This document shows, one piece after another, positions 11,835-30,772 of a stretch of DNA of 64,000 bases. The stretch's first letter is position 1, and each line of letters starts with the position of its first letter. Origin of the DNA: a virus; IMG/VR virus record IMGVR_UViG_3300046616_000431, positions 1 through 64,000 of that record. One strand, given 5' to 3'. The notes below the pieces were generated by a model that saw nothing but the letters and a program-made list of their open reading frames with translations, did not search any database and was not told where the DNA came from. The position numbers and the translations under genes were made by a program.

Positions 11835-11846
11835 CACCCCTCGTTG

Positions 11847-11880
11847 CTGTTCCTCCCTGTTCTCCCGCCCCAAGGGGTGA
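11847..11880 (+). promoter_or_regulatory. Bipartite element 4 (portal)
   Basis: CTGTT (11847-11851), 20-base spacer, AAGGGGTGA (11872-11880). The right box lies in the loop of a perfect 13-bp inverted repeat, TGTTCCTCCCTGT/ACAGGGAGGAACA (11848-11860, 11887-11899). The right arm also carries the ribosome site of the portal gene. Confidence 0.72.
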
Positions 11881-11903
11881 GCCACCACAGGGAGGAACAC
11901 CCC

Positions 11904-14063
11904 ATGCCCGAGGACATGTCCGAGGCCGCGCTGTCGCGCATGTCTCGCCTGTTCCGCCGCGCCTCGCGCGGAGAGACAGAGTCGCCTGAGGCGCGCGAGA
12001 TGCGTGCGAACCGGCGCCTTCGCAAGAGTGCCTCCGAAGTCGGCAGGTCGGGCCCCTCGGTCAACTTCGCGACGCAGCGCCCGCGTGACCCCCTGTTCTA
12101 CTGGCGGCAGAACAACATGCCGTTTCAATTTGACGATCCGCAGCAGATGGCGAAGATGCGGGCGTACTGCCGCCTCGTATATGCCTCGCACCCGATCGTC
12201 GGCTCCTGCGTCGACATCTACTCCAAGTACCCGCTGCTCGGAATGAAGATGTCGTGCAAGGACGAGCGGCTCACCGACTTCTACACGCAGCATTTCCTCG
12301 AAGAAGAGGGCCTGAATTACAACAAGTTCATGGTCGACATCGGCCGTGAGTACTGGACGGTCGGCGAGGCCTGGCCGCTGGGCACCTTCAACGAGCCGCT
12401 CGGTGTCTGGGACGACGAGGAGCTGCTGAACCCGGACGACGTCGAGGTCCAGCCCTCCCCGTTCCTGCGTGACCCGCGCTTCCTGATCCGGCTCCCCACC
12501 GAGATGCGGGAGCTGATCCGCACCCGTCAGCCTGCCTGGGAATTCCAGAAGCTGATGGAGGCGTACCCGGAGCTGACGTATTACGCCGACGACAACGCGC
12601 TCATGCCAGTTTCGAATATCTTGCTGCGCCAGCTGAAATTCGAAGCCGACACCTTCAACAAGCGCGGCGTCCCCCTGCTTTACCGGGCGATGAGAAGCCT
12701 GATGCAGGAGGAGATGCTGAATGCGGCCGTCGACTCGGTGGCCGACCGGCTGTACACCCCGCTGATCCTGGCCAAGCTCGGCGCCTCCGCCTCGGACCTT
12801 GGCACCAGCGTGCCGTGGATCCCGACGCAGGACGACCTCGCCGACTTCGAGGAGGCCGTCGACCTCGCGCTCGCGGGCGACTTCCGCATCATCATGACCC
12901 ACTTCGGCGTCGACATGGAGCCGGTGCTGGGCAAGGAGGACGTCCCCGACCTCTCCCCGGACTTCGAGCGCATCGAGGGCCGGATCCTGCAGACGTTCGG
13001 CCTGTCCAAGACGATGCTGGCCGGTGCGTCCTCCGGTGAGACGTACGCGGCCGACGCCCTCAACCGCGACCTCGTCACGCAGATGCTGACGAACTACCAG
13101 CAGCTGCTGAACCGGCACTACCGCCAGCGCGCCCTCGTCGTGGCCGAAGCGCAGGAGCACTTCGACTACGAGGAGCGTGGCGGCAAGCGCTACGTGAAGA
13201 TGGAAGAGATCCTCGAAATCGACGAGGAGACCGGCGAGGAGCGCATCGTCGAGCAGCCGAAGCTGCTCATCCCCGAGCTGCAGTTCCGCACCATGTCCCT
13301 GCAGGACGAGGCCGCGCAGACGGAGTTCTTCGAGGCGCTGCGCGAGGCCGGTGTCCCGATCTCGATGCGCACCCGGCTGCACAACGTGCAGATCGACTTC
13401 GACGACGAGATCGAAAAATCCCGCGACGAGGCCGTCGAGATGGCGGTCGCCGAGCAGGAGACCCGCAAGGCCATCTACGTCGCGCTCAAGGACAAGGGCC
13501 TGCCGATCCCGCAGGACCTGCGCTCGGACTTCGAGCCGCGCGCGCTGCCTCCGGCCCAGGACCCCAACGCGATGCCGACGGCGGCGCTGCGGATCCCCCT
13601 GCTGGGCATGGACCCGGTCGGCGCCCAGCCCACCCTCGCGCCCACGATGCAGGACCTGCAGGGCACTCCGGCCGACGGCGGCGTCGCACAGCCCGGCGGC
13701 GTGCCCGAGCCCGTGGACGCCGACCAGGGCGGCGGGGATGCCCGGCCGGACGAGTCCGACGAGATGCGCGGCGACATGCCCAAGCAGTCCTCGAAATCGA
13801 CGTACACGCCGATCGAGGACGTCACCGGGCTGTTCCAGAACGCCGAGCGCATGCGCCACCTGGCCAACCAGCACAAGCCGAAGGTCACGGTCGCCGCCAA
13901 GCCGGACCCGAAGCCCGAGGGCGAGGACGGCGAGGAGCCCGAGGTTCCCGAGGCCGTCCAGCGCAAGCAGCCCATCGGGCTGTACGGCGGCCCCCGTCAC
14001 GTCGGCATGCGCCGCCACGTGAACGAGAAGGACATCAACAATCTGTGGGGGATCACCCGATGA
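11904..14063 (+). CDS. Portal protein
   Basis: 719 residues from ATG 11904; ribosome site GGGAGGAA. The protein forms the dodecameric DNA gate at the head vertex. Support: length and composition typical of large actinophage portals, an early segment DPLFYWRQNNMPFQF...MRAYCRLVYASHPIVGSCVDIYSKYPLLG, and the core FERIEGRILQTFGLSKTMLAGASSGETYAADALNRDL, which resembles the portal stem/crown region. The C-terminal 150 residues are Pro/Asp/Glu-rich. No separate motif proves it; the call rests on size, pattern and position before the spike and lysis genes. Stop overlaps the next ATG. Confidence 0.78.
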   Translation: MPEDMSEAALSRMSRLFRRASRGETESPEAREMRANRRLRKSASEVGRSGPSVNFATQRPRDPLFYWRQNNMPFQFDDPQQMAKMRAYCRLVYASHPIVGSCVDIYSKYPLLGMKMSCKDERLTDFYTQHFLEEEGLNYNKFMVDIGREYWTVGEAWPLGTFNEPLGVWDDEELLNPDDVEVQPSPFLRDPRFLIRLPTEMRELIRTRQPAWEFQKLMEAYPELTYYADDNALMPVSNILLRQLKFEADTFNKRGVPLLYRAMRSLMQEEMLNAAVDSVADRLYTPLILAKLGASASDLGTSVPWIPTQDDLADFEEAVDLALAGDFRIIMTHFGVDMEPVLGKEDVPDLSPDFERIEGRILQTFGLSKTMLAGASSGETYAADALNRDLVTQMLTNYQQLLNRHYRQRALVVAEAQEHFDYEERGGKRYVKMEEILEIDEETGEERIVEQPKLLIPELQFRTMSLQDEAAQTEFFEALREAGVPISMRTRLHNVQIDFDDEIEKSRDEAVEMAVAEQETRKAIYVALKDKGLPIPQDLRSDFEPRALPPAQDPNAMPTAALRIPLLGMDPVGAQPTLAPTMQDLQGTPADGGVAQPGGVPEPVDADQGGGDARPDESDEMRGDMPKQSSKSTYTPIEDVTGLFQNAERMRHLANQHKPKVTVAAKPDPKPEGEDGEEPEVPEAVQRKQPIGLYGGPRHVGMRRHVNEKDINNLWGITR

Positions 14064-17000
14064 CGTACACCCTGATTCCGGTCACCCGGACCTACCTCAA
14101 CGGGGCTACGCCGCGCACCGGCACGGTCCGGCTGCAGCTCGTCGGCCCCCTCTACAACGAGGGCGAGATAGCTGACCGCCAGCCGCAGATCGCCACCCTC
14201 GACGCGGCGGGCTCGATCTCGCTGACCGTGCGGGCCACGAACGACCCGGCGACCCTTCCGGTGGGCGGCGGCGCGTACGAGGTCACCGAGTCCCTGTCCG
14301 GCCTGGCCACCTCCGTCTACTACATCGAGGTGCCCTACGACGGCGGCCCCGTCGACCTGGCGACCGCCCCGCACCTGGCGGCCGGGGACATCAACGCCCC
14401 GGCCGTGCTGTTCCAGCCGGTCAACGAGCGCGGCCTGCCCGGCGGCTACCCGGTCCTGGACGGCTCCGGCCGTGTCCCGCGCACCCAGCTGCCTGCCGAC
14501 CTCGGCAGCGGGGGCGGCGGCAGCGGTGTCGTGCTCAGCGGCGACGCTACGGACATCCAGTCACTGGGCACCCGGGCGGCCGGTACGACCGGCAAGGCGG
14601 CCGACGCTGGCCACGTCCACCAGATGCCCACCCTCAGCCAGGTAGGGCCGCCGACCGCCAACGTCGACCTGAACGGCAAGCGTGCCGTCAACGCCGCCCC
14701 CGGCGTCGCCGCGACCGACCTGGCCACCGTGGCGCAGCTCGGGCAGTCCCTGCTGGGCTGGCTGAACGTCAAGGACACCGCGTACGGAGCCAAGGGCGAC
14801 GGGACGACCGATGACACGGCCGCGATCCAGGCGGCCTTCAACGCGGCTCCTGCCGGTGGCGTGGTCTACCTGCCGGAGGGTGTCTACCGGACCTCCGCCC
14901 CGCTGGTAGTGCCGCCTGCCATCACCGTGCGCGGCTCGCACGCCAACATGATGACGGCGCTCAACCTCGCGGACCCGCCGTGCTACATCCAGCCGCTGCC
15001 CGGCTTCACCGGCGCGTCGCTGCTCCTGCTGAAGGACCAGGCGGGCGGCGGGTACGCCAGCCTCCCGGCCGAGCACCGCATCGAGAACCTGATGCTGGAC
15101 GGCTCGACGCTGGACGGCACCAAGCCGGTCGACGGCATCTTCGCCGCTGGCAACATCCAGAACGTCCGGCTGGACAAGGTCACCATCCGGCGCATGTCGA
15201 ACAACGGCATCGTCACCGGCAGCATCGCCAACGTCTTCCCGTACTCGTGGCGGCTGACGAACGTGATGATCGACAACTGCCGGGGCAACGGCGTCCTCTT
15301 CACGCGCATGACCGACCTGACGATGATCGACTGCCAGGCCATCGGCAACTGGGCCCAGGGCATGGTCCTGTCGAACATCGCCAACAGCCAGCTGATCGGC
15401 TGCCGGTGGGAGTGGAACGGCAGTCACGGCCTCCACATCACCGGCAGCTGGGGCAACGGCACCGGCTCCGGCGGCATGCAGCTGGACGCCTCCTCGACCG
15501 ACCGCAACGGCGGCCACGGCGTCCTGATCGACGCCACCGGCAACGCGCCGGTCAGCATCACCAACCTGACGACCCGCCGCGACGGCCGCAACGGCGGCAG
15601 CGGCGGAGGCGGCTTCTCCGGCCTGGCCGTAGTCGGCGCGACCATGCCGGTCGTCGGCAACACCATCACCTGCTACCCGGGCGTGGACGACGACGGCACC
15701 GGCACGAACTCGCCCCAGTACGGCGCCCTCCTGTCCGGCTCGACGAGCATCCAGCTCGACGGGCTGTACCTGCACGCCGCGCAGGAAGGCCTCCACGACG
15801 ACGGCACCAACACGGCCGTCACCCTCGGCTCCAGCGTCACCGTGGCGTCCGGCCCGACGACCGCGCCCGCACGCAACGTGCGCCCGATCGGGGCTGGCTG
15901 GCTGAACGTCAAGGCGTTCGGCGCCAAGGGCGACGGCATCACGGACGACACCGCCGCGCTGCAGGCGGCCATCACGGCCGGTGGTGCGGCCCACACCACC
16001 GTGTACGTGCCGCCGGGAACCTACATGGTCAGCGACCCCATCGTCATCCCGGCCGGTGAGGGCCTGACGGTCGCGGGCGCCGGGTGGGGCTCCTCGATCA
16101 AGCTCCTGGCCGCGAGCGACTGCTTCGTCTTCAAGATGACCGCAGTCGACACCCGCGTCACCTTCCGGGACCTGGAGATCGACGGCAACTGCCTGGAGCA
16201 GGGCACCACCGGCACCTCCGGCGGCATCGACGGCTCCGGCTCCGTGGCGAGCCTGTACTTCAACATCCACTTCATCGCGTGCCGCGACGACGCCCTGTAC
16301 CTGGCAGGCATGACCGGCGGCGCGTTCGGCCACAACAACCGGGTCATCGGCTGCCTCTTCGACCAGTCGATGACCTCCACGGGCCCCGGTCGCGGCATCC
16401 ACATGGACAGCAACGACGAGAACCAGGTCATCGGCTGCGACTTCGAGTACCTCGGCGGATCGGGCGGCACCGGCGCCACCGCCGCTTCGATGATCTTCGA
16501 CCAGTGCGGGACGCAGTTCATCTCGGACTGCAACTTCGTCAACGGCGGCAACAACGCCATCGGCGTCCGCGTCCAGGACGCCAAGTCGACGAAGATCACC
16601 GGCTGCAACTTCGACGGCCTCGCCGGTACCGCGATCTTCCTCGCCGCGCAGCGGTGCGTCGTCACCAGCAACACGATCTTCTCGGTGGGTCACGCCGGTA
16701 CAGCGGGCCAGGCGTCCGGCATCCACCTGGAGTACGCCACCGCCGACAACGTCATCGCGCACAACGTGATCACCTCCGACCCGACGAACGGCGTCTCTCG
16801 CGGCGCCATCCGGGAGGCGTCTGACGGCAACTCCGGTGGCAACAACATCAGCAACAACACGATCGTCACGTCCGGCACCTGGGCCTACGCCCCGCTCGAT
16901 CTGAGCGGCAAGGGCTCGCAAGTACTGGGCAACATCGGCGGCGGGATCACCGGCGACCAGGCGATCTACGTCAACGTCAAAAGCCCCGCATTCAGGGCCA

Positions 17001-18304
17001 AGGGCGACGGGACCACCGACGACACCGCAGCGATACAGGCCGCGCTGACCGCCTGTCCTGCGGGAGGGACCGTCTACCTGCCGGTGGGGGTCTACCGCAC
17101 CAGCGCGCCGCTCACGATCCCGCCCTACGTGACGCTGAGGGGCACTCACGGGGGTGGGGAGGCGCAAAGCCTGTCATCGCCGAGGCCGTCTGCGATCAAG
17201 CCGCTCGCGTCCTTCTCCGGCGGTGCGGTCGTCCAGGTGCTGGATCAGCAGCTCGGCGGGTATGCCACGCTGGCGTCGGAGATCGCGCTCTACAACCTCA
17301 CCATCGACGGCTCGGCTCTGACTGCCGGATCGGGTATCGCAGGTATCCGGATGACGGGCCAGATCCAGCACGTCACGATGCGGGACGTGCAGGTGCGGCA
17401 GGTGCCGGGCATCGGCATCGACACCACCTACAACCTCAGTGCGCCTCCCGGTCCGCAGGCGCCTTTCTGCCTGCACTACAGCCGGGTCTCCGTCCTGTGG
17501 TCGGGCAGCCACGGCATCACCCTGAACAACTCCACGGACTCCACGTTCGAGGACGTCTACGTGCTGGGCGTCACCGGCTTCGGCTGGTACATCTCCGGGG
17601 CCAGCGGCTCTCAGTGGATCGCATGCCGAGCCGAGTGGTCCGGTCTGGACGGATTCAACCTCGCCGGTAACTCCGGCGTGGAGACCTTCATCGGCTGTTC
17701 CACCGACCGCAACGGCCAGAACGGCTTCTCCATCCCCTCCTCCGGCAGCACCGGCACAGTGGTCCTGTCCAGCTGCCGGATGACTCGCGACGGCAAGTCC
17801 TCCACCAGCGCCGGGTACTCCGGCCTCAACGTCAACGGCGCCACGCGGAAGGTCATCGTGGACGCCGTCGTCATCACCACCGGGCGGGACGACGACGGCA
17901 CCTCGGGCAACCTGAGCCCCCAGTACGGCGTCTCGGCGACCAACGCCGCGTACGTCGTTGTGGCGTCCGGCGACATCAACGGCGCCACATCGGCGTGGAG
18001 GGACGGCGGCGGCAACACCATGCTCCTGCGCGGGCCCACGGTGACCGGGAACAATCTGGCATCGGGCCCCATGGTGAAAGAGGGCACCAACGCGCGTATG
18101 GGAGTCGCCACCCTTGTGGCAGGCACCGTGACCGTCGCCAACACGAGCGTGGGAGCCAACAGCCGTATCTTCCTCACCCGGGCCACGGCGGGCGGCACCT
18201 TGGGCCAGCTGTCGTACACGGTCACGGCAGGCGTCAGCTTCACGATCAACTCAGCAGCCGCCGAAACGTCCACGGTGAACTGGATGATCGTCGAAGCCGC
18301 CTGA
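14060..18304 (+). CDS. Tail spike with three tandem pectate-lyase-like beta-helix domains
   Basis: 1414 residues; ATG 14060 overlaps the portal stop. Residues 1-110 are a strand-rich N-terminal module, then a linker with GSGGGGSGV. The pectate-lyase-3 entry motif occurs three times, at about residues 235 (LNVKDTAYGAKGDGTTDDTA), 614 (LNVKAFGAKGDGITDDTA) and 971 (VNVKSPAFRAKGDGTTDD). Each is followed by a VYLP/VYVP...GTY turn and long Asn/Gly-rich beta-helix repeats. These folds bind or cut surface polysaccharides. Domains 1 and 3 are most alike (YRTSAPL), which suggests internal duplication. Translational coupling to the portal is odd, because spikes normally belong with tail genes. Confidence 0.85.
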   Translation: MTYTLIPVTRTYLNGATPRTGTVRLQLVGPLYNEGEIADRQPQIATLDAAGSISLTVRATNDPATLPVGGGAYEVTESLSGLATSVYYIEVPYDGGPVDLATAPHLAAGDINAPAVLFQPVNERGLPGGYPVLDGSGRVPRTQLPADLGSGGGGSGVVLSGDATDIQSLGTRAAGTTGKAADAGHVHQMPTLSQVGPPTANVDLNGKRAVNAAPGVAATDLATVAQLGQSLLGWLNVKDTAYGAKGDGTTDDTAAIQAAFNAAPAGGVVYLPEGVYRTSAPLVVPPAITVRGSHANMMTALNLADPPCYIQPLPGFTGASLLLLKDQAGGGYASLPAEHRIENLMLDGSTLDGTKPVDGIFAAGNIQNVRLDKVTIRRMSNNGIVTGSIANVFPYSWRLTNVMIDNCRGNGVLFTRMTDLTMIDCQAIGNWAQGMVLSNIANSQLIGCRWEWNGSHGLHITGSWGNGTGSGGMQLDASSTDRNGGHGVLIDATGNAPVSITNLTTRRDGRNGGSGGGGFSGLAVVGATMPVVGNTITCYPGVDDDGTGTNSPQYGALLSGSTSIQLDGLYLHAAQEGLHDDGTNTAVTLGSSVTVASGPTTAPARNVRPIGAGWLNVKAFGAKGDGITDDTAALQAAITAGGAAHTTVYVPPGTYMVSDPIVIPAGEGLTVAGAGWGSSIKLLAASDCFVFKMTAVDTRVTFRDLEIDGNCLEQGTTGTSGGIDGSGSVASLYFNIHFIACRDDALYLAGMTGGAFGHNNRVIGCLFDQSMTSTGPGRGIHMDSNDENQVIGCDFEYLGGSGGTGATAASMIFDQCGTQFISDCNFVNGGNNAIGVRVQDAKSTKITGCNFDGLAGTAIFLAAQRCVVTSNTIFSVGHAGTAGQASGIHLEYATADNVIAHNVITSDPTNGVSRGAIREASDGNSGGNNISNNTIVTSGTWAYAPLDLSGKGSQVLGNIGGGITGDQAIYVNVKSPAFRAKGDGTTDDTAAIQAALTACPAGGTVYLPVGVYRTSAPLTIPPYVTLRGTHGGGEAQSLSSPRPSAIKPLASFSGGAVVQVLDQQLGGYATLASEIALYNLTIDGSALTAGSGIAGIRMTGQIQHVTMRDVQVRQVPGIGIDTTYNLSAPPGPQAPFCLHYSRVSVLWSGSHGITLNNSTDSTFEDVYVLGVTGFGWYISGASGSQWIACRAEWSGLDGFNLAGNSGVETFIGCSTDRNGQNGFSIPSSGSTGTVVLSSCRMTRDGKSSTSAGYSGLNVNGATRKVIVDAVVITTGRDDDGTSGNLSPQYGVSATNAAYVVVASGDINGATSAWRDGGGNTMLLRGPTVTGNNLASGPMVKEGTNARMGVATLVAGTVTVANTSVGANSRIFLTRATAGGTLGQLSYTVTAGVSFTINSAAAETSTVNWMIVEAA

Positions 18305-19773: not shown

Positions 19774-22590
19774 GTGGGCATCCAGCCTGACATTCCGCAG
19801 CGCCTGACGCACCAGACGCTGGGCATGCAGCGCCTGGCCGTACACGCAGAGGACTACTGGGAGTACAAGCCCGAGCAGCGCGTCCAGACCACCGACGGCC
19901 TGCCCGGCACTGTCAAGGCCGTCCTCGACGGCCCGTACCCGGGCTCCGAGGAGTACCAGGTCGAGCTGGACAAGGGGATGGGCGGCGGCGCGTACACCGC
20001 GAGCCAGCTGCGTCCTGCAGCCGCCACCACGGCGGCCATGGAACAGACAGCGGCAGCCGACTACCCCGAGCTGTCCCAGATCCTCGTCGAGCGGCCGGAC
20101 CCGGCCGGGATGATGGTCTACGCGGCCAAGGCAGCCCCCTTCGGCGACGACGACGGCAAGGACGACGACTCCTCTGACGACGACTCCGATGACGGAGACG
20201 ACGACAGCGACGACTCGGACGACGACGGGGACGACGACGACTCGGACGACGATTCCGAGGACAAGGACGACAACACCCCGCCGTGGGTGAAGAAGGACGC
20301 CTCGGCCCTGTTCGCCTCGCTGATCACCACGGCGGCGGCCGATATAGACTTCCGGTTCCAGGTCACCGCTGCCTGGAAGGACGTCGTCGCCAAGGCCAAG
20401 CGGATCCGCTCCGAGGGCGGCGTCCGCGTCACCATGGCTTCCGACGGCCTGGTCTTCGCCGATGTCAAGGGCGACAACGAGGTCTACGAGGCGGGCCTGC
20501 AGCGGCTGCCGAACAAGCAGGCCATTCACTCCTGGTCCTGCGGCTGCAAGTGGGGCGCCTACCACTGGGGCGCCGACGACGACTTCAGCAAGTTCGCCGG
20601 GCGCATGTGCTCCCACGCACTGGCCCTGCAGTACGAGGCCCAGTCCCGGGGCATGTTCGGCCGCAACGTCGGGGTCGACGAGACCCGGCCGCACTGGGTG
20701 CCCCGCAAGGTCGTCGTGAAGTACGACATCGACGCCGACAAGAACCGCCTCGCGCCGTCCACGGCCGCCTACGACCAGAACGGCGAGTACTTCGACAGCG
20801 GATACGACGATCACGAGGAAGCCGACCGTTCCAAGCAGTGGGACGACGTCCACGAGGGCCTTGAAGGCATCCACCGAGGCATCGGTATCCACCTGCGGCC
20901 CGAGGACCACGCCGTCGTCCACGACGAGGACCGGCCGCTGCACGAGCGCGCCCAGCACCTCCTGGAGTCCATCCCCCGTAGCCATGAGGGCCAGCGCCAC
21001 GGCCCCGACGGCAACGTGGGCTGGCACTGGTCGGGCAGCGACGGCGTCGGTGAGGACTTCGCCAACACGACCTCTCACCCCTCCCACCCCGGGCCGCTTA
21101 CCGGCGTCGTCTTCCACGGTCACAAGCCCGACCGGGGCGACATCAACGAGTACCCGGACCAGAGGGAGGGGGATGTCTACGGCTACCACGACCACGGCGA
21201 GCAGGAGGTTCCCCTGCACCACGGCAGCCACGTGGGGCTGAAGGGTGTCTCCTGGAAGGACATGGGCCGGGAGGAGGACCACCCCGCTCTCGGCCACGCT
21301 CACCCCAACGGCACGCCGTCCATGTTCTTTCCCTACCTGGGGGACTTCACCCACCACACGTTCGGCGAACACGAGCCCCAGCACGTCACCGCTCTGCGCC
21401 GGGGCTACGCTCCTCTCTCCGTCGTCGCGCGCGCGGCCGTGAAGGCCGGTGAGAACCGAGCCGAGGTCAAGCTAGCCATGTACGCAGCAGGCATTCAGGC
21501 GACGGCCAGCGACGATGATGACGCGGAATGCGAAACCTGCACCGAGCCGTTCTACGACGGCCAGAGCCACGAGTGCCAGCACTGCGGCGGCGAGCACCAC
21601 ACCAACTGCTGCGACTACGACACCGGGCACACCGACTGGGACCAGGTCCACCCGCACCTGAACGGCGTGCACCGTGGATTCGCTGTCAACCTCCCCTCGA
21701 ACGTGCATTCCCAGGTCCACGACCCGCAGAAGCCTGTCCACGAGCGCGCCCATGCGTTGCTCGACTCGGTCGCCGACGGCAACGACGGCTTCGGTATGCA
21801 CTGGAGCAGCAACCCCAGCCAGGCCGAGCATTACGCCCACGTCTCACACCCGGACCGTGGCGCTGACGGCGGCCACCAGAGCACCCACGTGATGCTGCAC
21901 GCCAAAACACCGGCCCGCGATGACATCGAGACCGACCCCGACACGCTGATGGACCACCACGTCATCGGCTATGACAAGCACGACGACCATGAGGTCCCGA
22001 TCCAGCGCGGCGCCGATGTTCACATCAGCGGCATCTCGTGGAAGGAGCCTCACAAGCACGAGTGGACGCGGCACGACTTCGACAAGCCGGTCACGCACTT
22101 GGCCAACGCCGACGCCCCGTTCGGGGCGCCGTCGGGTACCTCGTACGAGCTGCCGAAGGCGCCGGGCGCGACGTCGCCGAAGATGCCGTGGGAGAACCCG
22201 GCGTCGGCGGGCAACCTCGCGGGCGCCGACCCGGTGGGCTGGAACCGCAGGCTGCCGCTGGAGTCCTACGCCTCGCTGGACGACCAGCACTCGCTGTTCG
22301 AGCCGGGCGGCACCGAGGCCACGCTGAACGAGGAGCCGGAGGGCGCGCTGCCCGAGACGGACGGCATGCAGATCCCGTCCAACGACGAGGCGCTGTCGCC
22401 GTCCATCACGGGCAGCCTGCGGCGCCAGGCGCTCAAGGACTTCACCCTCGCCGAGCGCCAGGCGCTCATCGACGAGGGAGAGGGGGTCCGGGCCGCCAAC
22501 CTGGACCTCCTGAAGATCGAGGGGACCCACTACGCCGACCTGGAGCAGATCCTGGCGGCACAGGAGGACGACACCACATGGCTGGAATGA
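19774..22590 (+). CDS. SWIM-finger protein with two ADP-ribosyltransferase-like domains
   Basis: 938 residues from GTG 19774 (GGGAGG upstream). Order: small beta domain with PGTVKAVLDGPYPGSEEYQVELD (about 40-75); an Asp/Ser tract of about 40 residues (124-168); a SWIM zinc finger (CxCx(n)CxH: SWSCGCKWG at about 252 and RMCSHALALQ at about 278); two similar domains at about 359-495 and 625-760. Each of these has IHRG/VHRG, GWHWSGS/GMHWSSN, and QEVPLHHG/HEVPIQRG, in the order of the Arg, Ser/Thr and Glu motifs of ADP-ribosyltransferases. A CETCTEPF...CQHCGGEHH ribbon precedes the second. It may be a virion enzyme injected into the host. The ART assignment is by motif only. Confidence 0.6.
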   Translation: MGIQPDIPQRLTHQTLGMQRLAVHAEDYWEYKPEQRVQTTDGLPGTVKAVLDGPYPGSEEYQVELDKGMGGGAYTASQLRPAAATTAAMEQTAAADYPELSQILVERPDPAGMMVYAAKAAPFGDDDGKDDDSSDDDSDDGDDDSDDSDDDGDDDDSDDDSEDKDDNTPPWVKKDASALFASLITTAAADIDFRFQVTAAWKDVVAKAKRIRSEGGVRVTMASDGLVFADVKGDNEVYEAGLQRLPNKQAIHSWSCGCKWGAYHWGADDDFSKFAGRMCSHALALQYEAQSRGMFGRNVGVDETRPHWVPRKVVVKYDIDADKNRLAPSTAAYDQNGEYFDSGYDDHEEADRSKQWDDVHEGLEGIHRGIGIHLRPEDHAVVHDEDRPLHERAQHLLESIPRSHEGQRHGPDGNVGWHWSGSDGVGEDFANTTSHPSHPGPLTGVVFHGHKPDRGDINEYPDQREGDVYGYHDHGEQEVPLHHGSHVGLKGVSWKDMGREEDHPALGHAHPNGTPSMFFPYLGDFTHHTFGEHEPQHVTALRRGYAPLSVVARAAVKAGENRAEVKLAMYAAGIQATASDDDDAECETCTEPFYDGQSHECQHCGGEHHTNCCDYDTGHTDWDQVHPHLNGVHRGFAVNLPSNVHSQVHDPQKPVHERAHALLDSVADGNDGFGMHWSSNPSQAEHYAHVSHPDRGADGGHQSTHVMLHAKTPARDDIETDPDTLMDHHVIGYDKHDDHEVPIQRGADVHISGISWKEPHKHEWTRHDFDKPVTHLANADAPFGAPSGTSYELPKAPGATSPKMPWENPASAGNLAGADPVGWNRRLPLESYASLDDQHSLFEPGGTEATLNEEPEGALPETDGMQIPSNDEALSPSITGSLRRQALKDFTLAERQALIDEGEGVRAANLDLLKIEGTHYADLEQILAAQEDDTTWLE

Positions 22591-23057: not shown

Positions 23058-24350
23058 TCAGACGGTTTCGAGGCGCCGGTGGAACTTGGCCATGAGGACG
23101 GGGTTGGCCATGGCGTTGCCGATCGGCAGGAACAGGGCGGTGGTGGCCAGCGGATCGTCGGCGGGCGACAGGATCGGGCATCCCGGGTTCTCGGAGTGCG
23201 GCTCGGCGCCGGTCTTCTTGAGGTGTATGGCGGCGCGCAGCAGGTAGGCGGGGACGACATGATCGGGCAGGCCCAGCTCACGGACGGTCTCCTGGCTTTC
23301 GTCGCGCAGGCTGGCCGGGAGGTACGCCTGGAGCCGGATGGAGGCGTCGCAGATCTCGGTGACCCGGCGGTGCAGCCGCTGGTCCAGGCCGCGCCAGTTC
23401 CAGAAGTCAATGAGCGCGCGGCGTGTCTTGCAGGCCCTCTTCATCACGACCGGTGCTCGCGGGCTCAGCTTCCGGATTACCCATCGTTCCTTGTCGCTGC
23501 GGTAGACCACAGAGGGCACGGCGTAGGTGAGGGCGCTCCACATCGGCCGCAGGTCATTGATGGCTGCGTGCATCTCCATCCGGGCGGCCATCCGTTCCCA
23601 CATCGGCGCGCTGCTTCCGACGATCATGAGGAGGCCCCAGCTGCTGAGGGCGAAGGAGGAGAAGACCGAGACGAAGCCGTCGCCGCCGAGGAACGGCTTG
23701 TCGAAGAGGCGGACTACCAGGTAGCCGATCCGCAGGTTGGCGTACGTGGCGCCGATCGAGCAGCCGATGGCCATGCCGTGCATGCCGAGCTTGAAGGCGC
23801 CCTTGGCCTTCGGGTCGCGGCTGGCGGCAGCGAGCATCATGGAGGCACAGATCGTGCCGAAGGCCATGTAGACGTAGTAGAAGAGCAGGTGCAGGGAGCC
23901 CCAGAAGTGCCCGGCCTGCTGGAAGATGTAGTCCCCGCCCCCGTCCCCGTCCACGTTCCGGGAGGCCTGGGGAAACAGGATCACGCTGACAGCGACCGCT
24001 GCCCAGGTCGCGGCGCGCCGGGGACGGTTGCTGATGACCCTGCGGTACCGGGGCTCACGCTTGCCGTCCATGCGGCCGGGAACCACGGCCATGACCCACT
24101 GCAGCAGCAGCGCGACGCCCGCGAACCTGGAGATGTGCTGGGCCAGCATGATCGCATCGTCCCTGCCCGTGGCCTGCGCAACGAAGTCTGCGACGGAGCA
24201 GATCCGGGTCGCCATGGCGATGTCCATGACCACCAGGAAGGCCCAGAGGGCGCGGCTTTTGTGGTTGCGCAGTGCGGAGGGCAGGCGCCTGATGCATTCG
24301 AGGGTCAGGGCGATGACGGTGAGGGTGAAGAGATCAGGTGTGGCGGTCAC
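23058..24350 (-). CDS. Multi-pass membrane protein (MAB_1171c-like)
   Basis: 430 residues from the GTG at 24350, whose GTGA overlaps the stop of the peptidase gene. The N-terminal 230 residues hold about seven hydrophobic segments (LFTLTVIALTLECI, LWAFLVVMDIAMA, FAGVALLLQWVMAVV, ATWAAVAVSVILF, LHLLFYYVYMAFGTI and two more). The C-terminal 190 residues are soluble, with MWSALTYAVPSVVYR and DQRLHRRVTEICDASIRL. This matches, from memory, the actinobacterial MAB_1171c family, which is often encoded next to XRE and ImmA-like genes, as here. It acts in the cytoplasmic membrane; 'putative transporter' is the common label but the substrate is unknown. Confidence 0.72.
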   Translation of the reverse strand: MTATPDLFTLTVIALTLECIRRLPSALRNHKSRALWAFLVVMDIAMATRICSVADFVAQATGRDDAIMLAQHISRFAGVALLLQWVMAVVPGRMDGKREPRYRRVISNRPRRAATWAAVAVSVILFPQASRNVDGDGGGDYIFQQAGHFWGSLHLLFYYVYMAFGTICASMMLAAASRDPKAKGAFKLGMHGMAIGCSIGATYANLRIGYLVVRLFDKPFLGGDGFVSVFSSFALSSWGLLMIVGSSAPMWERMAARMEMHAAINDLRPMWSALTYAVPSVVYRSDKERWVIRKLSPRAPVVMKRACKTRRALIDFWNWRGLDQRLHRRVTEICDASIRLQAYLPASLRDESQETVRELGLPDHVVPAYLLRAAIHLKKTGAEPHSENPGCPILSPADDPLATTALFLPIGNAMANPVLMAKFHRRLETV

Positions 24351-24880
24351 CAAAACTCGTTTCGTGTATCGAGGCACTCTCTGATGTTGTCGACCAGGCT
24401 GGACCCCGGCGGGAGGGTTCGTGCCAGCCAGTCATCCGCGAAGTAGCTGAACTCTTCCGCTCGCTGCTCGCGGGGGTCGCTGAAGTCGGTCCTGCACATG
24501 CTGGAGGCCCACAGCGCCGCACTGGTGTGGCGGCAGAGGCCCTGGAGGAGCCTCATGAGGTCCTTGAGGTCGATCGGGTCGGGCTCGTCGCCGTTGACCA
24601 TGTGACCGAGTTCGTGGCTGACTATTCGGCGTTCCAGGACGCCGGTCGCTGCGGGGTGGATCCAGACGAGGTCGATGTTCCCGCTGCTGACCCACATGCC
24701 GCTCGGGCCGCTGGGAGACGCGGCCTGGGGATCACGGGTCACCACGAGGCGGTGTCCTCGCACCTGGCGGACGTACTCGCGAAGCAGAAGCTCGGGTGTC
24801 CGGGGCCCGTCAGGGAGAACGAGGTCCTGGAGGGCCTTGTTCCACTCGCTTCTGACGCCCCTGCCCCGCCTCAACTTCAC
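24347..24880 (-). CDS. ImmA/IrrE-type zinc metallopeptidase
   Basis: 177 residues from GTG 24880 (GAGGGGGCG upstream). The catalytic HExxH motif is VSHELGHMVNGD, with a downstream acidic residue in EQRAEEFSYFADDWLAR as the likely third ligand. Order and length fit the ImmA/IrrE group, which cleaves XRE-type repressors (known for ImmA/ImmR of ICEBs1). The XRE regulator is immediately upstream and the membrane protein is coupled downstream. Together they look like a signal-controlled repressor switch: membrane sensor, protease, repressor (inference). Confidence 0.8.
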   Translation of the reverse strand: MKLRRGRGVRSEWNKALQDLVLPDGPRTPELLLREYVRQVRGHRLVVTRDPQAASPSGPSGMWVSSGNIDLVWIHPAATGVLERRIVSHELGHMVNGDEPDPIDLKDLMRLLQGLCRHTSAALWASSMCRTDFSDPREQRAEEFSYFADDWLARTLPPGSSLVDNIRECLDTRNEFW

Positions 24881-24952
24881 CGCGCCCCCTCATGTCTCAA
24901 TCTCGCCTGTCACATACAGCAGTCAGCGTAGGCCAAAGTACTGACAGTGCAG

Positions 24953-25501
24953 TCAGGAGGGCGGCTCTTCGTCCCTGGCAATCTTGATCGCGGCCAACTG
25001 CATGTGGATCATGCCTGTGGCCGTACGGGCGTCCAGTTCGCTCGCGCCGCGCATGAGGGCCATGAGGAGCTGTCCCGCGTTCGCCGCCCCTCCCGCCTCC
25101 ATCTTCTTCTTGAGCTGGCGCACGGCGACCAGCATGTCGACCTCGTCCTCGATGGCGACGGTCTCGGGGGTGCGCTGGTCGCCCTCGAAGAAGTAGGCCG
25201 GGGAGACCTCGAAGAAGATCGCCAGGTACTGCAGGACGTCCTTGGTCGGGTTGCGCCGCTTGCCGCTGAGCAGGTCACCCATGTACTGGCGGTTCAGCAG
25301 ATCTCTTTCGTTCCGCCCCGCAGGAGGTAGTTTCTGTCGCGTGACAGAAAAGTGGTCGTCGGCGTACAACCTTGAGACCTCCTCGGCGATCTCACTGATG
25401 TCGTACTTCTCGCCATCAGGTCGACGCTTGAGGTATCGCAGGCGATGCAGCTTGTTGGCGAGCGGTCCGAGAGCGGGATCGCTCGTGGGCGCCTCTCCCA
25501 T
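24953..25501 (-). CDS. XRE-family transcriptional regulator
   Basis: 182 residues from ATG 25501 (GGAGGGGAGGGG upstream); the frame extends further but without a ribosome site. The helix-turn-helix lies around LNRQYMGDLLSGKRRNPTKDVLQYLAIFFEVSPAYFFEGD, the usual XRE pattern with a YLAIFFEVSPAYF end. The first 80 residues (LRYLKRRPDGEKYDISEIAEEVSRLY) match actinobacterial XRE proteins. The C-terminal part (VDMLVAVRQLKKKME) is a helical dimer or protease-recognition region. It faces the forward genes across a repeat-rich promoter region, so it may be the lysogeny repressor. Confidence 0.82.
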   Translation of the reverse strand: MGEAPTSDPALGPLANKLHRLRYLKRRPDGEKYDISEIAEEVSRLYADDHFSVTRQKLPPAGRNERDLLNRQYMGDLLSGKRRNPTKDVLQYLAIFFEVSPAYFFEGDQRTPETVAIEDEVDMLVAVRQLKKKMEAGGAANAGQLLMALMRGASELDARTATGMIHMQLAAIKIARDEEPPS

Positions 25502-25570
25502 GAGTCGCCCCTCCCCTCCATCTTGAAAAATGTCTCCGGCAGTCGCGGCAGAGTCTACCCACGATGTCGA

Positions 25571-25647
25571 GAAAGTTGACACGGGCTCGTGTTGTTGAAC
25601 TTTCTTGCGTCTGAAGTTGACACGACCGGAGGTACGGGACGTACGAT
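25571..25647. promoter_or_regulatory. Operator/promoter cluster upstream of the XRE regulator
   Basis: GAAAGTT (25571-25577) and AACTTTC (25598-25604) form an inverted repeat. AAGTTGACACG occurs at 25573-25583 and again at 25614-25624, 41 bases apart. TTGACA (25617-25622) with TACGAT (25642-25647) could be a forward promoter with a long 19-base spacer. Likely binding sites of the divergent XRE protein. Confidence 0.6.
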
Positions 25648-25728
25648 TCCGCTCACGGAAGGCAACATTTGAGCGGGGGGTGAAGCAGAGTGGCGGCTGA
25701 GACCAGTGGGACCGCCCCGCTCGCGCTC

Positions 25729-25763
25729 CTGTCGGGCACCGGCCCCGCAGCGGCAAGGGGTGA
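25729..25763 (+). promoter_or_regulatory. Bipartite element 8
   Basis: CTGTC (25729-25733), 21-base spacer, AAGGGGTGA (25755-25763). GTGAG/CTCAC (25760-25764, 25772-25776) forms a small hairpin over the right box. Confidence 0.65.
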
Positions 25764-26479: not shown

Positions 26480-29179
26480 GTGCTGAAGTTCGCCACGGCC
26501 CAGATCATCGCCGCCAGCCTCGGCGACCAGCAGCGCGTCACGAAGGCCGCCCACCGCGCCGTCTTCAGCTACGAGGCGCGGCCGGGATACCTGTACGTGC
26601 GCTCCCGGGCCATCTCCTCGCGCTGCAACGACAACTGGGACGAGTTCCCCGCCGAGGAGATCGCGAAGGCGTACGGCTCCTTCGTCGGCAAGCCGGTCTT
26701 CGTGAACCACAAGAACGACAACCACCGGCGGGCGCGCGGCGTCATCATCGACGCCGCCCTCCACGAGGACAAGAACCCCGACGGCACCCCGGACACCTGG
26801 GCCGAGGTCCTCATGGAGATCGACGCCAAGCAGTTCCCGAAGCTGGCCAAGGCGATCCTCGCCGGTCACATCGACCGGACCTCCATGGGCTGCGACGTCG
26901 AGCGCTCCGTGTGCTCCGCCTGCGGCAACGTGGCGACCACCCCGGCCGAATACTGCGCACACATCCCGGGCCTGAAGGGCAAGCGGCTCTTCCGGCACAC
27001 CGCCTCCGGCCAGCGCGTCGGCGAGCTGGTCCGCGAGACCTGCTACGGCCTGTCATTCTTCGAGAACTCGGTCCTCGTCGAGCCCCCGGCCGATCCGACG
27101 GCCCACTTCCTCGGCGTGGACTCCTCCGGCCTCGGCAAGGCCGCCGCGATCGACTTCTCCGACTACGACCACGACGGCCTGGAAGAGGACGACGACGAGG
27201 AGAACAAGCCGCACACCCCGACGCCCACGGCTCCTTCGCAGCACCCTCGTCCGGCCCAGCCGCACGTCCCGAACAACGGGACCGCGCACGACAACCAGCG
27301 ACGTCGTGACGTCGTAACGAACACGCACCCCTTCACACCGCTGAAGCCCAGCCTCAACACCCTGCAGACGACGGCCTCCCTCGAAGTCGAGGCGGCCGGA
27401 CCCCAGTACCAGAACCCGGGCGACCACCCCTGGTTCAAGGAGACCGGACTCAGCCACGAGCACGTCCTGAACCACTGGGACCAGGCCACCGACGAGGAGA
27501 AGAAGCAGGGCGCCCGCTGGTACCCGGACGCCCACCACGTCGCCAAGGCCATCGCGAAGCTGAACCCCGACATCACGGACGACAAGGAGGCCGCCCACAA
27601 GGGCGCCGGTGTCCTGTCGGCCTACAGCCCGCAGCAGAACTGGTGGGCCAACCAGCACAACGCCGCACGCTCGTTCGTCGGCAAGAAGGCCGTCGGCAAG
27701 GGCGAGGGCCTGATGGTCATGTCCTCCCACGCCAACGCCGCGCAGAAGATCCTGGACGGCGAGGACCACCAGAAGGTCCTCAAGGGCCCCAAGACCCAGG
27801 ACTTCGCCCACCTGATCGAGCACGGCGGCAACGACGAACACGGCCAGCCGTCCAAGCGCGTCGTCATCGACCGGCACGCCCTGTCCGTCGCCGCCGGACG
27901 CCGCCTGAACGCCGACGACTCCAAGGGCTTCCCCTCCAGCAACCGGCACTACTACGAGCACGCCGCCGACCAGTACCGCACGGCCGCCGCCGTCATATCC
28001 GACCGCGAGAAGCGCCACGTCCCGCCGCACGAGGTCCAGGCCGTCACCTGGCTCACCCGCCAGCGCCTGAACGCGGCCGAGGACGAAGGCTCCCCGGGCG
28101 GCAAGGGCCGCCAGACCGTGCAGCGCAACCAGCGCCAGCAGTGGAAGGACCTCGCGGGCGAGCACACCCCCCAGCTCAAGGACGACGGCAACTCGCACGT
28201 CTCCAAGCTCGTCAGCGCCGACGCCATCCTGGAGGACGGCACGATCCGCACCGTGGCGTACGGAGAGGTCAAGGCCCCGGCCGACGTCGACACCCTCCGC
28301 GAGGAAAACTGCCCCGTCTGCGGCGACAGCGACACCTACGACGGCCAGGCCTGCCAGATCTGCGGGTTCATCAGCCCGCCGACACAGTTCCGCGACCCCG
28401 ACCTCGACATGGCCAAGCGCCTCGACCTGCGCAAGCAGATCGTCGACCCCTCCCTCGTCGACAACAACGGCGAGCTGCAGCGCGTCGACCAGGACGGCAA
28501 CGCCATGCCGCAGGACCCGAACGCCGACCCCAACGCGGACCCCAACGACCCCGACGCGCAGGCCGACCCCAACGACCCGAACGCGCAGATGGTCGACCCG
28601 GACCAGCTCGACGAGAACGGCCTGCCGCCGTCCCCGTACGGAGACCAGGCCCTCGACGGCACCCAGCAGGGCCCCAGCCAGTCCGACCGCAACGGCGACG
28701 GCATGATCCAGCCCAACGAGATCGACATGGACGGCAACGCCAACGTCCAGCAGCAGGTCGACCCGGAGATGGGCGGCCAGGCCGGACCCCGCGAACTGCC
28801 CGGCTGGGGCAAGGACCGCACCGGCGACGCCTTCACCCCCGGCCCCGACATGCCCTACCGCCCCGACGAGCCGGGCAACCCCAACGACGTCCTCGGCCAG
28901 GACGACGACGACCGCAACCCGATGGGCATGCCGACCCCGGCCCCCATGATGGGCCGCCCCGGCGACGGCATCCCGGACCTGATGTGCGGCAACTGCGGCT
29001 TCGCAGCCGACGCCACCCCGCCCCAGACCCAGAACATGGGCGACCCCATGGCGGCCACCGACGGCGTACTCGACGGCGACGTCTGCCCCAGCTGCCAGCG
29101 CGGCCAGCTCCTGACCCCCGGCGAGATCAACTCGAACTATTCCAAGGCACCTGCTGTCGAGCACCCCGCATACAGCTGA
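26480..29179 (+). CDS. Capsid maturation protease fused to DUF7178-like and zinc-ribbon domains
   Basis: 899 residues from GTG 26480 (ACAGGAGG). Residues 1-230 (SFVGKPVFVNHKNDNHRRAR, ILAGHIDRTSMGCDVER, TCYGLSFFENSVLVEPPADP) resemble head proteases of large actinobacterial myoviruses, with a CSACGN...YC insertion. Residues about 305-540 hold GAGVLSAYSPQQNWWANQHNAARS and VVIDRHALSVAAGRRLN, which I relate from memory to DUF7178, a phage family of unknown function. Then follow a ribbon (CPVCGD...CQICGF), an Asp/Pro/Asn tract (DPNADPNDPDAQADPNDPN) and a last ribbon (CGNCGF...CPSC). The position before scaffold and capsid genes supports the protease call. The fusion is unusual. Confidence 0.65.
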   Translation: MLKFATAQIIAASLGDQQRVTKAAHRAVFSYEARPGYLYVRSRAISSRCNDNWDEFPAEEIAKAYGSFVGKPVFVNHKNDNHRRARGVIIDAALHEDKNPDGTPDTWAEVLMEIDAKQFPKLAKAILAGHIDRTSMGCDVERSVCSACGNVATTPAEYCAHIPGLKGKRLFRHTASGQRVGELVRETCYGLSFFENSVLVEPPADPTAHFLGVDSSGLGKAAAIDFSDYDHDGLEEDDDEENKPHTPTPTAPSQHPRPAQPHVPNNGTAHDNQRRRDVVTNTHPFTPLKPSLNTLQTTASLEVEAAGPQYQNPGDHPWFKETGLSHEHVLNHWDQATDEEKKQGARWYPDAHHVAKAIAKLNPDITDDKEAAHKGAGVLSAYSPQQNWWANQHNAARSFVGKKAVGKGEGLMVMSSHANAAQKILDGEDHQKVLKGPKTQDFAHLIEHGGNDEHGQPSKRVVIDRHALSVAAGRRLNADDSKGFPSSNRHYYEHAADQYRTAAAVISDREKRHVPPHEVQAVTWLTRQRLNAAEDEGSPGGKGRQTVQRNQRQQWKDLAGEHTPQLKDDGNSHVSKLVSADAILEDGTIRTVAYGEVKAPADVDTLREENCPVCGDSDTYDGQACQICGFISPPTQFRDPDLDMAKRLDLRKQIVDPSLVDNNGELQRVDQDGNAMPQDPNADPNADPNDPDAQADPNDPNAQMVDPDQLDENGLPPSPYGDQALDGTQQGPSQSDRNGDGMIQPNEIDMDGNANVQQQVDPEMGGQAGPRELPGWGKDRTGDAFTPGPDMPYRPDEPGNPNDVLGQDDDDRNPMGMPTPAPMMGRPGDGIPDLMCGNCGFAADATPPQTQNMGDPMAATDGVLDGDVCPSCQRGQLLTPGEINSNYSKAPAVEHPAYS
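27300..27313. other. Recurrent 14-mer GACGTCGTGACGTC, copy 3
   Basis: Lies in the linker of the protease gene (reads D-V-V-T). It breaks an otherwise low-complexity stretch and is identical to the copies at 522-535 and 4277-4290. Confidence 0.4.
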
Positions 29180-30259: not shown

Positions 30260-30772
30260 ATGATCCGCGTTCGGGCAGCCAACGCCCACATCAAGAGGAC
30301 CTTCCGACCGACGTACGCCTGGACCCAGGCAACGCCGAAGTCGGTCTTCCTCGACCCGGCCTGGGACCGCAGCTTCCTCATCTACCCGGGCATGGTCCTC
30401 ATGCGCACGGCCGGTGAGCTGGTGACCCTGATCGGAGGCTCCGGCGTCCCCTACGGCTTCGCGGCCGACTACGTCGGAGGCGACGGCTTCGACCCGCTCC
30501 TCGACGTCGGCGTCAACGCCACCGCCGTCTGGGTCTTGGGCACCGACGGCGAGGCCGAGATCCTCGCCCCCGCCTTCGACAACACCCAGACCTGGACCGA
30601 CCCCGGCGACGGCACCGAGAAGCTCGTCTACGCGATCACCGCCGGAACCGGCCGAGGCAAGCTCGCCCTCGCCACCAACGGCGCCGTGGCCACCGCCATC
30701 TCCGCCCAGCCGGTCGCCCGCCTGCTCAAGGTCAACAGCACCAGCAAGATCACCATCGGCGGCCTGCGCTAA
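30260..30772 (+). CDS. Capsid decoration protein candidate
   Basis: 170 residues. Strand-rich and compact (AGELVTLIGGSGVPYGFAADYVGGDG, NATAVWVLGTDGEAEIL, KLVYAITAGTGRGKLALATNGAVATAISAQPVARLLKV), ending TSKITIGGLR. Small beta-rich proteins encoded just before the major capsid gene commonly cement the capsid, and the Gly/Ala/Val-rich closing segment is typical of that class. No sequence motif proves it. It shares a transcript with the capsid gene, 41 bases downstream. Confidence 0.6.
   Translation: MIRVRAANAHIKRTFRPTYAWTQATPKSVFLDPAWDRSFLIYPGMVLMRTAGELVTLIGGSGVPYGFAADYVGGDGFDPLLDVGVNATAVWVLGTDGEAEILAPAFDNTQTWTDPGDGTEKLVYAITAGTGRGKLALATNGAVATAISAQPVARLLKVNSTSKITIGGLR

What the first reader, a model, noticed from the sequence alone, without database searches (positions are those of the whole stretch)
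19774..22590. Giant SWIM-finger protein with duplicated ADP-ribosyltransferase-like domains
Two domains of about 135 residues share (I/V)HRG, (G)xHWS and a closing EVPL/EVPI motif in the order seen in ADP-ribosyltransferases. They are joined to a CxCx(n)CxH SWIM finger, an Asp/Ser tract and a Cys-rich ribbon. Located beside the lysis genes with its own element. It could modify host proteins or polymerase at the start of infection.
Basis: partly seen in the sequence, partly recalled or inferred. Interest (0 to 1): 0.75.

Follow-up and report, generated by a model that had tools for sequence, protein, structure and literature searches.

The report
Phage head-module protein carrying two ADP-ribosyltransferases
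Beside its capsid genes this Streptomyces-type phage encodes a protein that carries, on a conserved zinc-finger body, two copies of a previously unnamed enzyme domain that probably attaches ADP-ribose to host molecules, most likely after being injected with the phage DNA.

Summary
The 938-aa protein (19774-22590) has two domains (residues 352-497 and 619-759; 37% identical, E=6e-25), an Asp/Ser tract, a SWIM finger (C256-x-C258-x20-C279-x-H281) and a Cys ribbon. No Pfam family matches the domains. AlphaFold2 with 33 relatives gives a confident model (pLDDT 88), and all 50 PDB entries listed on structural re-alignment are ADP-ribosyltransferase (ART) superfamily or ART-like, though each match is modest (Z 3-6). 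Arg (30/33), Ser/Thr (30/33) and [E/D]-x-E are conserved, and three degenerate copies lose all of them together, as expected for the R-S-E clade. The host protein is the orthologue of a core head-module protein of Bxz1/Myrna-like actinobacterial phages (portal, SWIM protein, protease, minor capsid, major capsid). The ARTs are removable cargo: relatives carry none, one or several, a LysM domain, or an unrelated Arr-type ART plus GNAT. Two more copies lie in polyvalent-type genes by the terminase. The family also occurs, unannotated as ART, in mycobacteriophages Myrna and Bigswole. Best reading: virion-packaged, injected mono-ARTs of the polyvalent-effector kind, a new R-S-E family. The ART assignment is strong; packaging, activity and target are inferred.

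The parts
19774..22590 (+). CDS of the cargo-carrying SWIM protein, 938 aa
   Evidence: GTG start with GGGAGG 6 nt upstream; orthologous to Myrna gp96, LRRHood gp91, Phrappuccino gp52, Finch gp16, E3 gp76, RedWattleHog gp12, Skog gp157
19855..20016 (+). N-terminal segment (res 28-81) that looks like a small beta-barrel and sits where orthologues have a similar segment
   Evidence: conserved in closer relatives (tblastn); resemblance to the N-termini of the mycobacteriophage orthologues judged by eye only
20143..20271 (+). Asp/Ser-rich tract (res 124-166), linker
   Evidence: sequence; acidic tracts also in L015, L017, L018 orthologues
20335..20667 (+). SWIM zinc-finger domain (res 188-298); ligands C256, C258, C279, H281
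   Evidence: CxCx20CxH invariant in 24 relatives; PF04434 matches 13 of 24 orthologues, best E=8.5e-6; AF2 model best matches ZSWIM8, Z 7.5 against 3.6 for the next entry
20827..21264 (+). ART-like domain 1 (res 352-497): R368, S420, E476-x-E478
   Evidence: paralogue of domain 2, E=6e-25; triad conserved
21526..21621 (+). Cys-rich zinc ribbon (res 585-616)
   Evidence: CxxC...CxxC...CC directly before ART 2; similar CxxC pairs precede some other copies (P0002, L004, L038)
21628..22050 (+). ART-like domain 2 (res 619-759): R634, S678, D738-x-E740
   Evidence: AF2 pLDDT 87.8, pTM 0.82; structural re-alignment list all ART superfamily or ART-like
22381..22539 (+). Conserved C-terminal tail (res 870-922) of the body protein
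   Evidence: 37-54% identical to tails of Myrna gp96, E3 gp76, Finch gp16, LRRHood gp91
11844..14063 (+). Portal protein (head-module context)
   Evidence: phrog_2833 E=4e-144
26480..29179 (+). Prohead protease with inserted DUF7178 (context; second cargo carrier)
   Evidence: phrog_18299 E=3e-22, PF23802 E=1e-34; L125 orthologue aligns only to 1-308 and 543-899, so it lacks the insert
30260..30772 (+). Minor capsid protein homologous to Myrna gp98 (context)
   Evidence: phrog_2783 E=4e-31; 35% identical to the Myrna gp98 region; role from PMC7150772
30814..31803 (+). Major capsid protein (context)
   Evidence: phrog_2522 E=3e-106

Best explanation
The gene encodes a head-module protein whose fixed parts (N-terminal segment, SWIM finger, C-terminal tail) are a conserved body shared by Bxz1/Myrna-like actinobacterial myophages, into which effector domains are inserted. 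Here the cargo is two R-S-E ADP-ribosyltransferases separated by a zinc ribbon. Proposed mechanism: the protein is made late with portal, protease and capsid, enters the head (the SWIM finger, acid tract and tail possibly help docking or DNA association), is ejected with the DNA, and the ARTs transfer ADP-ribose from NAD+ to host macromolecules, by the [E/D]-x-E motif most likely arginines of proteins, to favour take-over or disarm defence, as T4 Alt does. Shown: domain family, ART-like fold, triad conservation, orthology of the body, cargo variation, purifying selection. Inferred: catalysis, packaging, injection, arginine target, purpose.
For: Fold: AF2 pLDDT 87.8 with 33 sequences; re-alignment lists 50 entries, all ART superfamily or ART-like (Tpt1, cholera/LT/pertussis A chains, TreTu, ScARP, PARPs, DarT1; top Z 5.7). 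Catalytic signature: R 30/33, S/T 30/33, E 29/33 preceded two back by E/D in 29/33; the three copies without R also lack S/T and E. dN/dS 0.17-0.55 between orthologous domains. Body orthology and synteny portal - SWIM protein - protease - minor capsid - MCP in seven named actinobacterial phages. Cargo variation: L019 protein aligns to 13-119, 180-326 and 782-926, i.e. lacks exactly the ART block; LysM instead in Phrappuccino and LRRHood; Arr-ms ART and GNAT in L025, L035, Arr-ms in L037. Same genome: two further copies after the terminase, one in a protein with ART-PolyVal PF18760 (E=5e-8), a GNAT match (E=3e-4), 2H phosphoesterase and an HELTHH zincin-like motif. Same family in Myrna gp78 (E=9e-9) and Bigswole gp88 (E=2e-9), upstream of the portal. 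Phage ARTs near head genes are argued to be packaged and injected (PMC5512222; PMC9503650).
Against: No solved ART matches by sequence, and Foldseek alone is not significant (best E 0.96); every Z is below 8. No virion proteomics was found for any orthologue. E3 gp76 is annotated 'LysM-like', while neighbours gp70 and gp78 are annotated 'structural'. No target, no activity. Some relatives do without any ART copy in this protein, so the activity is not essential to the virion.
Confidence: 0.62

Rival explanations
1. Active ARTs, but made and acting inside the infected or lysogenic cell rather than injected: late host-lysis or superinfection-exclusion effectors, or enzymes acting on the phage's own capsid or packaging proteins.
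For: Gene follows the endolysin; a conserved minus-strand HTH/ImmA/membrane cassette lies directly downstream and a close relative is a 157-kb contig in a Streptomyces genome assembly, so lysogenic expression is possible.
Against: Body orthologues lie in the core head module in lytic mycobacteriophages too; polyvalent-type cargo in the same phages.
Confidence: 0.2
2. NAD+-consuming enzymes (NADase or NAD phosphorylase) or nucleic-acid ADP-ribosyltransferases rather than protein-arginine ARTs.
For: Closest structural ranks include Tpt1/KptA and the guanine-specific ScARP; a SWIM finger and zinc ribbon could hold nucleic acid; one member has a weak RES hit (E=0.1).
Against: [E/D]-x-E precedes the catalytic Glu in most copies, whereas guanine/asparagine-specific ARTs usually carry Q-x-E (recalled knowledge, not tested here).
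Confidence: 0.22
3. Catalytically dead ART folds used as structural or binding modules of the head.
For: Some relatives carry clearly degenerate copies (L026 first copy, L027, L031), and copy 4 of this genome has lost ExE (NWR).
Against: Both window copies keep the full triad; loss of R, S/T and E is joint, not gradual; dN/dS well under 1.
Confidence: 0.08
4. Not an ART: another alpha/beta fold that shares short HRG/HWS/EVP motifs.
For: Sequence profile search of the PDB finds no ART; Foldseek PDB E-values are not significant.
Against: All 50 listed structural matches are ART superfamily or ART-like; motif order and strand order (R strand, helices, S/T strand, helix, strand, ExE strand) match R-S-E ARTs.
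Confidence: 0.06

Closest known systems
Polyvalent proteins of phages and conjugative elements (Iyer et al. 2017, PMC5512222)
   Same: Large multidomain proteins encoded in the head/packaging region of a portal-terminase phage, with ARTs as commonest protein-modifying cargo, plus GNAT, 2H, zincin and zinc-ribbon domains in the same genome
   Different: Described polyvalent ARTs are of the H-Y-D HYD2 type; these copies are R-S-E with [E/D]-x-E, match no Pfam family, and sit on a conserved SWIM head-module protein
T4 Alt (Alt/VIP2 family)
   Same: R-S-E type ART expected to be packaged and injected to modify host proteins early
   Different: No detectable sequence match to a Pfam ART family; duplicated and fused to SWIM, ribbon and head-module tail; [quoted passage not shown]
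Bxz1/Myrna-type 'LysM-like' head-module proteins (Myrna gp96, E3 gp76, LRRHood gp91)
   Same: Orthologous body: SWIM finger, C-terminal tail, position between portal and prohead protease
   Different: Their variable middle carries LysM or nothing recognised; here it carries two ARTs and a ribbon
ART-PolyVal (PF18760)
   Same: ART cargo in polyvalent proteins; a true match exists in P0003 of the same genome
   Different: The finding's domains do not match PF18760 and have R-S-E, not H-Y-D, residues

Membership tests
ADP-ribosyltransferase superfamily, R-S-E clade | ART fold (split beta core) | tested here: met
   AF2 pLDDT 87.8; 50 of 50 listed entries in the structural re-alignment are ART or ART-like, top Z 5.7, each modest. 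Met on consensus, not on any single strong match
ADP-ribosyltransferase superfamily, R-S-E clade | Arg on strand 1, Ser/Thr on strand 2, [E/Q/D]-x-E late | tested here: met
   R634/S678/D738-x-E740 and R368/S420/E476-x-E478; conserved 30/33, 30/33, 29/33 with joint loss
ADP-ribosyltransferase superfamily, R-S-E clade | Three residues lining one NAD pocket | tested here: inconclusive
   No coordinates available; only alignment ranges compatible with CTA1 register
ADP-ribosyltransferase superfamily, R-S-E clade | NAD-dependent ADP-ribose transfer | not testable with these tools
   needs assay
SWIM zinc finger (PF04434) | CxCx(n)CxH with SWIM fold | tested here: met
   invariant in 24 relatives; Pfam matches 13 orthologues, not the window member itself; ZSWIM8 Z 7.5
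Polyvalent proteins | two or more functionally disparate domains in one polypeptide | tested here: met
   P0001: SWIM + ribbon + 2 ART; orthologues add Arr-ms and GNAT; P0003: ART-PolyVal, GNAT, ART-like, 2H
Polyvalent proteins | encoded with portal/terminase/virion genes | tested here: met
   between portal and protease/MCP; sister copies follow the terminase
Polyvalent proteins | packaged in virion and injected | not testable with these tools
   needs virion proteomics
ART-PolyVal / HYD2 (PF18760) | sequence-profile match and H-Y-D residues | tested here: not met
   none of 33 members matches at E<=1; residues are R-S-E
T4 Alt/VIP2 ART family | sequence-profile match to a known ART exoenzyme/Alt family | tested here: not met
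   no ART family of Pfam matches any of 33 members at E<=1 except one weak RES hit (E=0.1); only weak phrogs hits of unknown function

The most novel reading that the evidence does not exclude
A core head-module protein (SWIM body) and the neighbouring prohead protease of Bxz1/Myrna-like actinobacterial phages act as general cargo vehicles into which injected effector domains are slotted and exchanged (R-S-E ARTs, Arr-type ARTs, GNAT, LysM, DUF7178), with degenerate ART copies kept beside active ones as regulators or binding modules. The ART family is new and also present, unrecognised, in well-studied mycobacteriophages.
Probability: 0.35. Interest if true: 0.75.

Novelty: new variant of a known kind. 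Interest (0 to 1): 0.58.

Why it matters
Injected ARTs are known in detail essentially from T4 Alt. Here a large family with the same kind of catalytic signature appears in the head modules of actinobacterial myophages, including Myrna and the Bxz1-like Bigswole, which grow on the laboratory strain M. smegmatis mc2 155. That makes early ADP-ribosylation by actinophages directly testable, gives a function hypothesis to proteins annotated 'ParB-like', 'LysM-like' or hypothetical, and suggests that a conserved head-module protein is a natural cargo carrier whose loading signal (SWIM, tail) could be studied.

Tried and rejected
Single-sequence scans of viral contigs with domains 1 and 2, and tblastn of domains 2 and 3 against phage genomes, found nothing useful; relatives came only through the SWIM orthologues and domain 3. 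A first four-copy alignment had no stretch conserved enough for a scan. A profile search of PDB sequences gave only chance hits. Pfam hits on the Asp/Ser tract (DNA_pol_phi, Nop14, RNase E) are composition artefacts; FYVE on the ribbon (E=0.065) is not credible as FYVE. 'LysM-like endolysin' naming of orthologues was rejected for this protein: no LysM motif in it. Rfam and tRNA searches were empty. Literature searches found no description of this family as ART or of its virion presence; only open-access papers were searchable. I considered a recent tandem duplication; the tree rejects it.

Full report
WHAT IS THERE. The + strand ORF at 19774-22590 encodes 938 residues from a GTG with a GGGAGG site six bases upstream. 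In order it holds an N-terminal segment (28-81), an Asp/Ser tract (124-166), a SWIM region (188-298), ART-like domain 1 (352-497), a Cys ribbon (585-616), ART-like domain 2 (619-759) and a C-terminal tail (870-922). The two domains are 37% identical over 149 positions (E=6e-25). Pfam, PHROGs and NCBIfam do not recognise them.

FURTHER COPIES IN THE SAME PHAGE. The window is part of a 112-kb virus record. A search of it found another copy at 106782-107288, and reading the adjacent genes gave a fourth. Both lie directly after the large terminase gene: P0002 (566 aa, copy 3 behind a CxxC ribbon) and P0003 (1269 aa). P0003 is a textbook polyvalent-type protein: HELTHH motif, ART-PolyVal PF18760 (E=5e-8), a GNAT match (E=3e-4), copy 4, a YHGT ART-like segment and a 2H phosphoesterase. 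Copy 4 has lost the ExE motif (NWR).

IS IT AN ART? Relatives were gathered through SWIM orthologues in viral contigs and iterated profiles, giving 33 aligned copies. AlphaFold2 on domain 2 with this alignment gives pLDDT 87.8 and pTM 0.82. Foldseek against the PDB is not significant on its own, its best hit being an ART (E 0.96). Structural re-alignment of Foldseek's candidates lists 50 entries, all ART superfamily or ART-like: Tpt1, A chains of LT, cholera and pertussis toxins, TreTu, ScARP, PARPs, DarT1, with Z 3.1-5.7. Each Z is modest and would mean little singly; the unanimity is what counts. The list is a second look at Foldseek's own ranking, so it is not an independent search. In sequence, the Arg is present in 30 of 33 copies, Ser/Thr in 30, Glu in 29 and an acidic residue two before it in 29. 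The three copies lacking Arg lack Ser/Thr and Glu as well. Joint loss is what an enzyme active site predicts. Orthologous domains evolve under constraint (dN/dS 0.17-0.55). I could not measure the pocket itself.

THE SWIM FINGER. C256-x-C258-x20-C279-x-H281 is invariant among 24 relatives. PF04434 matches 13 of them (best E=8.5e-6), though not the window's own copy. The AF2 model (pLDDT 79) matches ZSWIM8 at Z 7.5, against 3.6 for the next entry.

THE BODY PROTEIN. The SWIM region and the C-terminal tail are shared with Myrna gp96, LRRHood gp91, Phrappuccino gp52, Finch gp16, E3 gp76, RedWattleHog gp12 and Skog gp157. In these phages the gene lies between the portal and the prohead protease, followed by a ~170-residue protein and the major capsid protein. 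In Myrna that small protein is the minor capsid protein gp98 (PMC7150772). The window has the same set: portal 11844-14063, SWIM protein, protease 26480-29179, minor capsid 30260-30772, major capsid 30814-31803, interrupted by lysis genes and a minus-strand cassette.

CARGO. The middle of the protein is variable. L019, from a 155-kb relative, aligns to residues 13-119, 180-326 and 782-926 and so lacks exactly the ART block. Other relatives have one ART of type 1 (L012, L015) or type 2 (L016, L017, L020), two to three copies before the SWIM finger (L021, L026, L029), or degenerate copies. The tree places the window's domain 2 with L016/L020 (100/95) and domain 1 with L012/L015/L025 (99/99), so the pair is an old one, retained differently. 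Others carry Arr-ms (PF12120, E about 1e-10) and GNAT (L025, L035) or Arr-ms alone (L037, E=1e-5); mycobacteriophage orthologues carry LysM. The neighbouring protease behaves alike: its DUF7178 insert (327-526) is missing from the orthologue in L125.

SPREAD. Across 13 whole records there are 0-6 copies per genome. Myrna gp78 (annotated ParB C-terminal domain) and Bigswole gp88 (hypothetical; the matching Bigswole protein is named ParB-like nuclease in the structure library) score E=9e-9 and 2e-9, keep YRG, HWT and EQE, and lie upstream of the portal. A whole 8.1-Mb Streptomyces assembly gave one hit, in its 157-kb phage-like contig, which also speaks for the specificity of the profile. More distant tandem stand-alone relatives occur in other viral contigs (L096-L098, L106-L124).

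HOW IT PROBABLY WORKS. Reviews of phage ARTs conclude that those encoded with head genes or in polyvalent proteins are probably packaged and injected, as T4 Alt is (PMC5512222; PMC9503650). The anatomy here fits: a head-module body with exchangeable effectors. The [E/D]-x-E motif suggests arginine-directed transfer; this rests on recalled knowledge of ART families, not on a test here. Packaging, injection, activity and target are inferences.

NOVELTY. The kind (injected polyvalent ART effectors) is known. An R-S-E family in this role, on a SWIM head-module body, is a variant: the 2017 survey reports HYD2-type ARTs in polyvalent proteins and states that Alt-type ARTs are not found in genuine ones. 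I found no earlier naming of this family, within the open-access literature searched.

Noticed in passing
L003:6411-8111 and L003:8108-11917 (record positions 106410-108110 and 108107-111916): An 11-residue motif (ATAFFRQAA-like) recurs at the N-termini and at domain junctions of the two terminase-proximal proteins, and in L004 relatives, but nowhere else in the scanned record; possible capsid-targeting or processing signal.
   Followed up: partly
window 26480-29179: The prohead protease carries a DUF7178 insert (res 327-526, E=1e-34) that the L125 orthologue lacks: a second head-module protein with removable cargo.
   Followed up: partly
window 23058-25756 (minus strand): Membrane protein, ImmA-like metallopeptidase and HTH regulator form a minus-strand cassette inside the head module, conserved at 29-51% identity in relatives; suggests temperate lifestyle or a regulatory/defence cassette.
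   Followed up: partly
L025, L035, L037 (SWIM orthologues): Rifampin-ADP-ribosyltransferase-like (Arr-ms, PF12120) domains fused in the same head-module protein.
   Followed up: partly
L128:22942-24375 (Myrna gp78) and L129:4409-6790 (Bigswole gp88): Mycobacteriophage proteins named ParB-like or hypothetical contain this ART family with intact YRG/HWT/EQE; gp88 also holds a second degenerate copy.
   Followed up: yes
window 14045-18304: 1419-aa tail spike with repeated pectate-lyase-like units; segments 239-714 and 975-1417 of it match the same stretches of relatives.
   Followed up: no
L003:6411-8111, residues 309-535: C-terminal part of P0002 (contains GSEASHFYGNNDLDVLIG, nucleotidyltransferase-like by eye) is 29-33% identical to hypothetical proteins of Streptomyces phages Alone3, LuckySocke, pSt2308, GiJojo and BRock.
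   Followed up: no
L096-L098, L106-L124: Small stand-alone relatives (about 125-170 aa) of the same ART family occur in tandem in unrelated viral contigs.
   Followed up: no
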